From positions 1 to 54,697 of the forward strand of contig JANYGK010000010.1 of the NCBI GenBank assembly GCA_025362395.1: DNA of 54,697 bases, read 5' to 3'. Numbering within the stretch: position 1 is the stretch's first letter; every line of letters starts with the position of its first letter. This DNA comes from Bacteroidota bacterium. GTDB lineage: Bacteria; Bacteroidota; Bacteroidia; B-17B0; Aurantibacillaceae. The notes under the pieces are model-generated. The model made no database searches and was not told the DNA's origin. It was given only the letters and a program-made list of their open reading frames with translations. The position numbers and the translations under genes are program-made. Below, one piece after another: positions 8,710-45,160 of this stretch.

Positions 8710-8716
8710 TTTACAG

Positions 8717-8876
8717 GTGCGCCTCTCATACGTTGGCAGTAACGCTGTGGATGTGGACTAGCGGCGCGAACTGCTATTTTTATAGCACATCGTGGTGGCT
8801 TCCGGTCGTATAAAAATAGAAGTGGCTTTCGTCCTTGACTTTTTTATTTCTTTTTTCGTCAAGGAAAAAAGAAATT
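8717..8876 (+). repeat. Dispersed structured repeat, copy A
   Basis: This stretch is visibly related to 43219-43374. Both share the blocks CTCTCATrCkTTGGyArTA, a GCrAACTGC segment, a GGTGGCTT/GGGGGCTA segment, GAAGTkGG, and a terminal T-run followed by GTyCAAG. Between them lies a perfect 11-bp inverted repeat CTATTTTTATA (8774-8784) / TATAAAAATAG (8809-8819). The corresponding stem in copy B has a different sequence. An alternative small hairpin TGCTAT/ATAGCA (8772-8787) competes for the left arm. It lies between the convergent genes selD and the Gcr-family gene and is richer in G+C than ordinary spacer here. Its function is unknown. Confidence 0.6.
8833..8875. repeat. Two interlocking inverted repeats at the end of repeat A
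   Basis: Perfect 7-bp repeat CCTTGAC (8833-8839) / GTCAAGG (8858-8864) overlaps a perfect 11-bp repeat ATTTCTTTTTT (8846-8856) / AAAAAAGAAAT (8865-8875). The right arm of the first lies in the 8-nt loop of the second, which is a pseudoknot-compatible arrangement. There is no GC-rich stem plus U-tract, so it is not a textbook terminator, though it lies between convergent genes. Confidence 0.55.
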
Positions 8877-43076: not shown

Positions 43077-43178
43077 GACCAACAAAATATTTACTTAAAA
43101 TTAGCAAAAAAATTTAAGTATCCTAATTGCTCGCTCAACGGTTAAGGTAAAGAATACATGGAATTGATAAATTAAAAC

Positions 43179-43457
43179 GATAAAGATTAATATAAGATAT
43201 TAGAATACGTTAAGTTGAGTACGTCTCTCATGCTTTGGTAATAGGAGTGCGGCGTATTTTGAGCGAACGGTGCAAACTGCAAGTTTGAAAGGCATATGCG
43301 GGGGCTACTTGAAGTTGGCGTTTGCTCTTGTTCCTCAAACTTGCGGGATTGTTTTTTTTGTTCAAGCGAAAGATAGAAGAAGATAAATTAAAATACCAAT
43401 TCCGGTTTCCATATTATTCTAATATGCCATTATAAATAAAAAGATAAAGATTAATAT
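43179..43457 (+). mobile_element. MITE-like unit containing repeat B, next to dnaX
   Basis: A 15-bp perfect direct repeat GATAAAGATTAATAT occurs at 43179-43193 and 43443-43457; the right copy includes the dnaX stop codon. Just inside lies an 11-bp inverted repeat, ATATTAGAATA (43197-43207) / TATTCTAATAT (43415-43425). The dispersed repeat copy B fills the centre. The arrangement is that of a small non-coding transposed unit with a target duplication, but both flanking repeats are AT-rich and no transposase is present, so chance or local duplication remain possible. The rest of the 374-bp gap (43077-43450) holds nothing I recognise. Confidence 0.35.
43219..43374 (+). repeat. Dispersed structured repeat, copy B
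   Basis: Homologous to 8717-8876 in scattered blocks (CTCTCATGCTTTGG, GTGCAAACTGC, GCGGGGGCTAC, GAAGTTGG, T-run then GTTCAAG). Its central stem is a perfect 10-bp inverted repeat GCAAGTTTGA (43279-43288) / TCAAACTTGC (43335-43344), different in sequence from copy A's stem but in the equivalent position. An alternative hairpin CAAAC/GTTTG (43273-43287) competes for the left arm, as in copy A. It is non-coding and noticeably richer in G+C than the surrounding spacer. Confidence 0.6.
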
Positions 43458-45160
43458 TCGATATCCAGGTCAAACCTCTTTTTCAATTCAAGTAAAGAAG
43501 GATTTTTCTCAGCCATTAGTTTAAATTTATCTTGCGGCTTATAGGCTTTTACTTCGCCCTGTAGTTCTGATACTTTTATTTCGAGCTGCGCTTGCTTATT
43601 AATCAACATATTCCTAAGCTCATCAAGCATGTCTTGTTTAATACTGGTAAGCATTTGCATTTGCACCTCGTTATTAAGCATAATAACAATAGTGCTTTGT
43701 TGTAAGCTTATATTACTCGATGTTAAGGTGGCATACAATTGTTTATTGCCCATTTTAGATTTTTCTTCGGCAAATTGTTTTACCGCATTCGCTACTCTCT
43801 CAATGCTAAGCTCAACATCCACACTGTTGGCATACTCTTTAACATCAATGGTTTCAACTACAGTCTGTGCATGCTTTGCGGTATCCTGTAATAAAAATTG
43901 CGATTTTATTTTTAGTTCGGTAAACCCTACAACAGGCCTGCTGCTGGTTTGAATAATTGGTTGTGAAGAAAATTTTACAGAGGCCGGCCCCTGCTCTAAT
44001 TCTTTTGGTTGAGCCTGAGACCCAAAACCGTTACTTAACTCATTTTTTTTTTCCGCATCCTGTGACGCGGTATTTAAATAGCTGATCTGCATTAAGGCCA
44101 TCTCAACCTGCAGTCGCTGGTTTTTAGCGGCTTTGTAATGAATATCGCATTTATTAATAACAGCCAGCGATTTTAATAAAAAAGGAGTAGCGCATAGTTG
44201 TGCCTGTTGAGCAAAACGTTGCTTTAAATTTTCACTTACTTCTAATAACTGAACCGTATACTGATCTTTACTTACCAATAAATTCCGCAAGTGTTCTCCA
44301 AATCCGATAATGAAATTATGCCCGTCGAATCCCTTTTTCAAAATATCGTCAAACGTTACCATTACTTCCGGTAAACGCCCGTTAATGGCGGCATCCGTTA
44401 ATTTAAAGTAGTAATCATAATCAAGCACATGCAAGTTTTCTACAACTTCTTTATACGTTAAATGATTTCCCGTAAAGGTTACCATTTGGTCAAAAATAGA
44501 ACAGGCATCACGCAAACCGCCATCCGCCTTTTGAGAAATTACGCTTAACGCTTCCGGCTCAAACGTAATATGCTCGCTGTTGGCAATATGCACCAATTGT
44601 TCGGTGATATCTTCCGCCTTAATACGGTTGAAGCTAAACACTTGGCAACGCGATAAAATCGTAGGAATAATTTTGTGCTTCTCTGTAGTTGCCAAAATAA
44701 ATTTAGCGTGCTTAGGCGGTTCTTCCAACGTTTTTAAAAACGCGTTAAACGCTGCGTTCGATAACATGTGCACTTCATCTATCACATACACTTTATAATC
44801 GCCCAACTGGGGCGCAAAACGCACCTGGTCTACTAAATTACGAATGTCTTCGACGGAGTTATTTGATGCCGCATCTAATTCATATACATTTAAAGACGCG
44901 CCTGAATCGAACGACACACATGACTCACACGCGTCACATGCCTCACCTTCGGGTGTAAGATTTGTACAGTTAATGGTTTTAGCGAAAATACGCGCGCAGG
45001 TGGTTTTACCTACCCCGCGCGGCCCGCAAAATAAATAAGCCTGGGCAACCTTACCGTTTTTAATGGCCTGCTTTAATGTATTGGTAATATGGCTTTGCCC
45101 AACCACCGTGTTAAAGTGCTGTGGACGATACTTACGAGCCGATACAATAAAATTATCCAT
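43451..45160 (-). CDS. dnaX: DNA polymerase III subunit gamma/tau
   Basis: 569 residues. The clamp-loader AAA+ ATPase domain has Walker A GPRGVGKT (46-53), zinc ligands C65, C75, C78 and C81, and Walker B VYVIDEV (124-130), followed by the SRC motif LSRCQVF. Domain III and a C-terminal tau-like extension follow. The protein loads the sliding clamp and couples polymerases at the fork. A TAAATTTG box (45174-45181, minus strand) lies 13 bp before the ATG. Its last codons and stop form one copy of the 15-bp direct repeat described at 43179-43457. Confidence 0.97.
   Translation of the reverse strand: MDNFIVSARKYRPQHFNTVVGQSHITNTLKQAIKNGKVAQAYLFCGPRGVGKTTCARIFAKTINCTNLTPEGEACDACESCVSFDSGASLNVYELDAASNNSVEDIRNLVDQVRFAPQLGDYKVYVIDEVHMLSNAAFNAFLKTLEEPPKHAKFILATTEKHKIIPTILSRCQVFSFNRIKAEDITEQLVHIANSEHITFEPEALSVISQKADGGLRDACSIFDQMVTFTGNHLTYKEVVENLHVLDYDYYFKLTDAAINGRLPEVMVTFDDILKKGFDGHNFIIGFGEHLRNLLVSKDQYTVQLLEVSENLKQRFAQQAQLCATPFLLKSLAVINKCDIHYKAAKNQRLQVEMALMQISYLNTASQDAEKKNELSNGFGSQAQPKELEQGPASVKFSSQPIIQTSSRPVVGFTELKIKSQFLLQDTAKHAQTVVETIDVKEYANSVDVELSIERVANAVKQFAEEKSKMGNKQLYATLTSSNISLQQSTIVIMLNNEVQMQMLTSIKQDMLDELRNMLINKQAQLEIKVSELQGEVKAYKPQDKFKLMAEKNPSLLELKKRFDLDIEY

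What the first reader, a model, noticed from the sequence alone, without database searches (positions are those of the whole stretch)
8717..8876. Two diverged dispersed repeats share a scaffold but carry different, self-complementary stems
The spacer after selD (8717-8876) and the spacer next to dnaX (43219-43374) align in scattered blocks over ~155 bp. At the same relative place each has a perfect inverted repeat, 11 bp in copy A (8774-8784/8809-8819) and 10 bp in copy B (43279-43288/43335-43344), yet the stem sequences are unrelated. Both also have a competing short hairpin using the left arm. A kept pairing with changed sequence suggests selection for structure in RNA or single-stranded DNA. 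A non-coding RNA, a REP/MITE-like element or a recombination site are candidates.
Basis: seen in the sequence. Interest (0 to 1): 0.65.

Follow-up and report, generated by a model that had tools for sequence, protein, structure and literature searches.

The report
Dispersed hairpin-pseudoknot repeats of Bacteroidota
The two spacers hold diverged copies of a small repeated element found throughout this uncultured genus, whose base-pairing is kept while its sequence changes and whose tail module turns up in related bacteria, so its folded single strand, probably RNA, appears to be under selection.

Summary
A covariance model built from 23 copies finds 30 at E<1e-6 in this genome and at least one in 19 of 19 other genus genomes. 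Copy B is missing from the same dnaX-patatin spacer in 8 other genomes, so the element disperses. Pairing is kept while sequence changes: 23 of 25 pairs show two-sided changes over 108 copies.

A pattern that leaves those lengths free finds module-like sites in 30 other genomes of the class (22 other genera). Rfam has no match at threshold.

Best reading: non-autonomous REP/ERIC-like repeats selected for a single-strand fold, probably an RNA hairpin plus pseudoknot, possibly with a U·A-U triple helix. Function and mobiliser are not shown.

The parts
8716..8876 (+). copy A of the dispersed element (full length), between selD and a convergent PF10136 gene
   Evidence: R1 match 1-145, 100 bits; neighbours
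8723..8748 (+). copy A: conserved 5' box (CTCTCATACGTTGGCAGTAACGCTGT), unpaired in the model
   Evidence: invariant and nearly invariant columns
8755..8762 (+). copy A: P1 5' arm (GGACTAGC), partly decayed
8827..8834 (+). copy A: P1 3' arm (TTTCGTCC)
8834..8839 (+). copy A: S1 5' strand CTTGAC (its C is shared with the end of P1)
8840..8845 (+). copy A: loop-1 T-run (n=6)
   Evidence: sequence; family statistics
8847..8857 (+). copy A: S2 5' strand TTTCTTTTTTC (n=6)
8858..8863 (+). copy A: S1 3' strand GTCAAG (loop of S2, complementary to CTTGAC)
8864..8874 (+). copy A: S2 3' strand GAAAAAAGAAA (n=6)
43218..43379 (+). copy B of the element, between a patatin-like gene and dnaX (both on the minus strand)
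   Evidence: R1 match 1-145, 110 bits; neighbours
43225..43252 (+). copy B: conserved 5' box (CTCTCATGCTTTGGTAATAGGAGTGCGG)
43261..43268 (+). copy B: P1 5' arm GAGCGAAC
43275..43283 (+). copy B: P2 5' arm AACTGCAAG
43320..43327 (+). copy B: P1 3' arm GTTTGCTC
   Evidence: gap columns of the other copies in the alignment; similar inserts in other copies
43350..43376 (+). copy B: rest of the 3' module (S2 strands and TTCAAG), degenerate

Best explanation
A and B are copies of a small (about 145-165 nt), non-autonomous, dispersed repeat. Shown by computation: it is multicopy; the dnaX copy sits at a site that lacks it in relatives; helices P1 and P2 keep pairing through many sequence changes; the 3' module has two crossing covarying helices and matched T-run lengths; the module occurs in many genera of the class, behind other long hairpins in the loci looked at. 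Inferred: the working form is one folded single strand, most likely RNA read from the strand given here, made of a hairpin (P1/P2) joined to an H-type pseudoknot. In it loop 1 (U-run) runs along stem S2 (U-run paired with an A-run), as either a length-matched spacer or the third strand of a U·A-U triple helix. The likely effect is that of an ERIC/REP-like element: wherever it lands it gives a transcript a stable, exonuclease-resistant structure. It spreads by an unidentified enzyme acting in trans or by recombination.
For: Copies: 30 at E<1e-6 in the genome, 23 of them training copies; 19 of 19 other genus genomes have at least one match at E<=0.01. Dispersal: 8 genomes keep the dnaX-patatin order without the element. 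Pairing: sequence-only alignment of 23 copies, 16 of 25 pairs with two-sided changes against 10.8 in shuffles (reached by 1 of 500) and 4-9 in slides; 108 copies in a model-fitted alignment, 535 two-sided cells against 178 in shuffles and 12-81 in slides; sequence-only alignment of the same 108 copies, P1 91%, P2 85%, S1 94%, S2 97% paired. S1 is not part of the fitted model, yet has 62 two-sided cells against 19 in shuffles and 0-20 in slides. T-run lengths of loop 1 and stem equal in 72 of 87 loosely parsed copies (21 of 108 unparsed) and in 64 of 65 strictly parsed copies (43 of 108 unparsed). Class-wide gapped pattern: of 82 rows outside this genome 66 are module-like; in these x-x' pairs in 64, y-y' in 65, run lengths equal in 53. 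At one site shared by three species the element is 85-88% identical and its flanks 48-59%; there the P1 sequence differs on both sides with pairing kept.
Against: No transcript evidence. Orientation to neighbouring genes shows no clear bias: upstream ORF on the same strand 15, opposite 11, none found 4, of 30 copies, with a crude ORF caller. G-U outnumber A-C mismatches 61 to 15 in P1+P2 of the model-fitted alignment, but in the sequence-only ones clearly only in P2 (30 to 11), not P1 (22 to 17), S1 (14 to 7) or S2 (14 to 13), nor in the 23 copies (15 to 9, P1+P2), so the RNA strand is not proven. S1 varies on both sides at only 2 of 5 pairs; on the measures 'pairs with two-sided change' and 'further pair types' it does not exceed shuffles (281 and 486 of 500 reach it). 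The pseudoknot leaves no bases between S1 and the 3' strand of S2, which is geometrically tight; the two helices could be alternatives. Copies share ancestry and may exchange sequence: the shuffles ignore this. Only 4 independent pairs on supported branches are available, all concordant, p=0.125. At two other shared sites the element is less well kept than its flanks (kas 86 v 94%, pyk 57 v 66%); at relA it is better kept (68 v 51%). Copies without a parsable module, B among them, are common.
Confidence: 0.5

Rival explanations
1. Single-stranded DNA substrate: the fold is recognised by an HUH (Y1/RAYT-type) enzyme that moves the element, as REPs are by their RAYT, and pairing is kept for transposition and not for RNA.
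For: Dispersed, hairpin-based, without an evident gene, and with the same kind of small palindrome inserted after CTTG in several copies. A paper reports Bacteroidetes RAYT genes (subclass 2.6, RAYT group 5) flanked by 'atypical secondary structures' with copies elsewhere in the genome (PMC6006769, passages and section 25 read). RAYT-like genes are in 6 of 20 genus genomes and Y1 genes in 12 of 20, this genome among them with one IS200-type gene.
Against: No match to the element better than chance level near 24 Y1 loci (best E 0.39) or 15 RAYT-like loci (best E 0.92), and no module by regex. No RAYT-like gene in this genome (32 matches), G016 (38), G009 (24) or G007 (15), and no Y1 gene at all in G016 and G007. 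Flanks are at most about 1.5 kb and some loci are cut by contig ends; the paper's structures were not compared by sequence.
Confidence: 0.25
2. A MITE body carried by a DDE or other dsDNA transposase; the structured core is a passenger and its pairing reflects gene conversion or cruciform symmetry.
For: In some genomes copies share longer flanks, some with inverted ends (G001/G014 AGTGGAATT..AATTCCACT; G016 GATACTTTTGCAAAAGTATC ends).
Against: Flank-to-flank pairing is not above random overall (median rank 52.5 of 104; 9 of 104 in the best 5%, about 5 expected). The core is shared across genomes while such flanks were seen in some lineages only. Two crossing helices with matched loop length are not expected from a palindrome.
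Confidence: 0.12
3. A transcription terminator or 3'-end module: hairpin followed by a U-rich tract.
For: P1 is followed directly by a CTTGAx and T-rich tract in most copies printed.
Against: No clear orientation bias to upstream ORFs; the terminator scan finds none over B and, over A, one inner hairpin that is not P1 (1 found, 0.4 expected); it does not explain the conserved x'TCAAG and A-run strands downstream.
Confidence: 0.1

Closest known systems
ERIC/IRU and related intergenic repeat units of enterobacteria
   Same: About 127-bp dispersed intergenic repeat that folds into a long stem-loop; reported to act through RNA hairpins in Yersinia (PMC2267715, passages)
   Different: Different phylum and sequence; ERIC is described as a single long stem-loop, here a hairpin plus a crossing 3' module; P1 and P2 are replaced in sequence between copies
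REP sequences and RAYT/TnpA-REP, especially subclass 2.6 (RAYT group 5) of Bacteroidetes
   Same: Dispersed structured repeats in Bacteroidetes with 'atypical secondary structures' (PMC6006769, passages and section 25)
   Different: No RAYT-like gene found next to a copy and none found in several copy-rich genomes; GT[AG]G foot not tested
H-type pseudoknots with major-groove triple helix (SAM-V riboswitch: start of abstract in the listing; telomerase RNA, MALAT1/ENE recalled)
   Same: Order of strands (U-rich loop, U-rich stem strand, A-rich stem strand) and length matching; the comparison is from recall
   Different: No ligand domain, gene association or experimental structure; no linker between S1 and the 3' strand of S2
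Flavo-1 RNA (RF01705)
   Same: A sub-threshold match (29.9 bits, threshold 42) lies beside copy C95a
   Different: The match lies outside the element; the element itself reaches no Rfam family's threshold in the loci searched

Membership tests
REP/RAYT system | cognate RAYT (Y1 HUH) gene flanked by copies | tested here: not met
   no match at E<=0.01 at 24 Y1 loci or 15 RAYT-like loci, flanks up to about 1.5 kb; no module by regex; structures of subclass 2.6 themselves not compared
REP/RAYT system | RAYT present in genomes rich in copies | tested here: not met
   6 of 20 genus genomes; none in G000, G016, G009, G007
REP/RAYT system | GT[AG]G tetranucleotide at the foot of the hairpin | not tested
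   no dedicated test
MITE | terminal inverted repeats shared by copies | tested here: not met
   no general flank pairing, 104 copies; inverted flanks in some copies of some genomes only
MITE | target site duplication | tested here: inconclusive
   imperfect direct repeat of about 28 nt around copy B (43168-43197, 43433-43460; seen by eye); other sites not tested
structured RNA family | covarying helices in one strand | tested here: met
structured RNA family | transcription | not testable with these tools
   no RNA data
structured RNA family | match to a known Rfam family | tested here: not met
   window at gathering threshold, 0 matches; 5 own loci and 20 class-wide loci at E-value threshold, none on the element reaches its family's score
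triple-helix pseudoknot | two crossing helices | tested here: met
   S1 and S2 cross and both covary; simultaneous formation not shown
triple-helix pseudoknot | third-strand U-run matched to A-U stem | tested here: inconclusive
   equal lengths in 64 of 65 strictly parsed copies, but shared ancestry and loop-length geometry are alternatives

The most novel reading that the evidence does not exclude
A previously undescribed, Bacteroidia-wide class of mobile structured RNA: a hairpin domain free to change its whole sequence, joined to a 3'-terminal pseudoknot in which a U-run, a second U-run and an A-run of equal length form a U·A-U triple helix that protects the RNA's 3' end, so that a selfish repeat spreads by giving transcripts a nuclease-proof tail.
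Probability: 0.22. Interest if true: 0.88.

Novelty: new variant of a known kind. Interest (0 to 1): 0.68.

Why it matters
It links two things that are usually seen apart: a dispersed bacterial repeat, and a complex fold with covarying crossing helices and matched strand lengths. If the fold is RNA, bacteria carry a common mobile module with the strand order of the triple helices known (from recall) in telomerase and long non-coding RNA tails. If it is single-stranded DNA, it gives a defined, testable substrate for an unknown mobiliser in Bacteroidota. The tail module gives a sequence handle for finding the class in other genomes.

Tried and rejected
Outer pairing of the flanks (insertion into terminator loops): a few striking cases, but own 3' flanks rank near random (median 52.5 of 104). 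Y1 or RAYT-like genes as neighbours: no copy beside those tested. A gene family shared by neighbourhoods: the largest cluster (28 loci) looks like translated repeat sequence, judged from one sample ORF; others were mostly ordinary genes, which led instead to shared sites. IMG/VR: the only pattern hit is a chance match inside a phage-like ORF. Plasmid collection: no match to copy A. Integron/attC and immunity-gene cassette arrays: considered because of tandem copies, but L355 holds no ORF of 50 aa between copies and L370 only a repeated 65-aa ORF; attC core sites were not tested by a tool. IS110 bridge RNA and IS200 guide sequences: considered from recall only. Two regex attempts to locate P1 by anchors picked wrong stretches, as their printed arms show (266 of 832 and 211 of 760 cells paired), and were dropped; the sequence-only alignment replaced them. 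The G-U against A-C strand test is only partly supportive. A2 was made from 94 of the 105 loci then held (L061-L105, L157-L216); 11 were left out to stay under the cap, some of them overlapping others. Literature: searches showed no description of this element or module in the held library; I saw listings with starts of abstracts, passages of PMC3733652, PMC6006769 and PMC2267715, and section 25 of PMC6006769.

Full report
Observation. Both inverted repeats are present at the stated places. The spacers are copies of one family, although blastn with one copy does not list the other; they are joined by third copies that both find. I built a model from 23 copies of this genome (four weak or deleted copies C43a, C51b, C91 and C12 were left out). 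Over the genome it finds 30 matches at E<1e-6, of which 23 are training copies, and 32 at E<=0.01. All 19 other genomes of the genus that were searched have at least one match at E<=0.01, from 1 to 44; outside the genus 11 of 21 genomes match, mostly weakly. Of 55 pattern hits in named genome records 54 are titled Bacteroidota/Bacteroidetes/Bacteroidia MAGs and one Magnetospirillum.

In copy A the right arm is the partner of the left arm in helix P2. In copy B the right arm chosen lies in a 19-nt palindromic insert downstream of P1; the homologous partner is 43308-43316. Similar palindromes sit at the same place in C84a and C7a and, in relatives, in L176, L269 and L278.

Dispersal. dnaX and the patatin-like gene remain neighbours in G016, G019, G017, G005, G009, G007, G013 and G018, and no model match at E<=1 lies between them; of the genomes looked at only this one has it. 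I inspected 12 of 26 dnaX loci by eye and gave 19 of 26 to the model search; G004 and G014 have another neighbour and G006 has other sequence there. For the selD side, 8 of the 10 loci of relatives with the PF10136 gene were searched and none has a model match at E<=1 within about 1.5 kb, but synteny with selD was not checked. The 30 copies of this genome lie between the longer ORFs; 14 overlap a short ORF of 70-111 aa, and there is no clear orientation rule. Some copies are at shared sites in two or three species, so insertions can also persist. In G016 copies sit head to head with other hairpin types that have the same tail module.

Structure. On the sequence-only alignment of 23 copies the named structure has 88.7% of cells paired, above every shuffle and every slide; for pairs with two-sided change 1 of 500 shuffles, and for further pair types 5 of 500, reach the observed value. 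With 111 matches (108 distinct), 23 of 25 pairs have two-sided changes (this alignment is fitted to the model). P1 exists in many versions, such as GGACGAAC/GTTCGTCC, CCAATTCG/CGAATTGG and GGCGAAAC/GTTTCGCC. A sequence-only alignment of the 108 copies gives 91, 85, 94 and 97% paired for P1, P2, S1 and S2. S1 (TTGAx with x'TCAA) was not in the model and still covaries: 62 two-sided cells, shuffles 19.3, slides 0-20; but only 2 of its 5 pairs vary on both sides, and two of the five measures do not exceed shuffles.

The 3' module. Its form is CTTGAx, Tn, G, TTTC, Tn, y, x'TCAAG, y', An, GAAA. S1 and S2 cross. The loop-1 T-run and the stem T-run have the same length in 72 of 87 loosely parsed copies and 64 of 65 strictly parsed ones; 21 and 43 of 108 copies respectively did not parse. 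On a tree of the upstream part the lengths change at least 13-14 times. Exchange of whole modules between copies could explain many of these joint changes, and only 4 independent pairs on supported branches are available (all concordant, p=0.125). In the G010 copies a C interrupts both T-runs.

Wider class. A fixed pattern (n=5, up to one mismatch) hits 20 of 395 phylum genomes, this one included; the reversed control shows a single hit. A pattern with both run lengths free hits 46 of 395 genomes and 33 of 197 genera of the class, with 89 places against 7 for the reversed control. Of the 82 places outside this genome, 66 are module-like, in 30 genomes (22 genera by the group codes); x pairs with x' in 64, y with y' in 65, and run lengths are equal in 53. 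Ten of the 13 others come from one genome, G582, each with one extra G. Upstream of these modules lie hairpins of other sequence: of 20 loci folded (one is this genome's), 12 have a 3'-most predicted pair ending 0-1 nt before TTGA; no shuffled control was run. Some stand in tandem, about 330-460 bp apart in L355 and about 380 in L370. Rfam: no match to the element at threshold in the loci searched.

Function. Conservation at one three-species site (element 85-88%, flanks 48-59%), with a two-sided P1 difference there, argues for selection on the fold, though copying from another copy could produce it, and three other sites do not agree with one another (kas 86 v 94%, pyk 57 v 66%, relA 68 v 51%). 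I favour RNA because two crossing helices with matched strand lengths are a typical RNA pseudoknot arrangement (recalled), and because G-U exceeds A-C in P2 (30 to 11); P1, S1 and S2 do not show this clearly. The mobiliser is unknown: no copy was found beside the Y1 and RAYT-like genes tested; RAYT-like genes are missing from several copy-rich genomes, and G016 and G007 have no Y1 gene either, while this genome has one IS200-type Y1 gene. The nearest published lead is the 'atypical secondary structures' flanking subclass 2.6 TnpA-REP genes in Bacteroidetes (PMC6006769, passages and section 25); I could not compare their sequences.

Noticed in passing
   Followed up: partly
L355 1487-3026; L370 1487-2293: Tandem arrays of a different long-hairpin element with the same 3' module; no ORF of 50 aa between copies in L355, only a repeated 65-aa ORF in L370.
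   Followed up: partly
window 43331-43349; L176, L269, L278: Short palindromes (CCCGCAAGCTTGCGGG, CCCGATAGCTATCGGG, CACGCCAAGGCGTG) inserted at one place in loop 1 of the module in several copies and species.
   Followed up: partly
L045 1682-1762: Sub-threshold Flavo-1 RNA match (29.9 bits, threshold 42) directly after copy C95a.
   Followed up: no
dnaX loci L143-L156 (G011, G015, G001, G002, G010, G008): dnaX matches as two pieces, about residues 1-373 and 368-569, neighbouring or slightly overlapping on the contig: split gene or frameshift in six genomes.
   Followed up: no
window 43168-43197 and 43433-43460: Imperfect direct repeat of about 28 nt on both sides of copy B, perhaps a target duplication.
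   Followed up: no
L280 5810-5830: The 5' box occurs in a contig labelled Magnetospirillum without a model match at E<=0.01 in the stretch held: mis-binned contig or chance.
   Followed up: no
downstream of copies L063, L066, L083, L088 (this genome): Copies in this genome share downstream sequence, in some with GAGATTGCTTC..GCAATGACG-like repeats, making mosaic repeat clusters.
   Followed up: no
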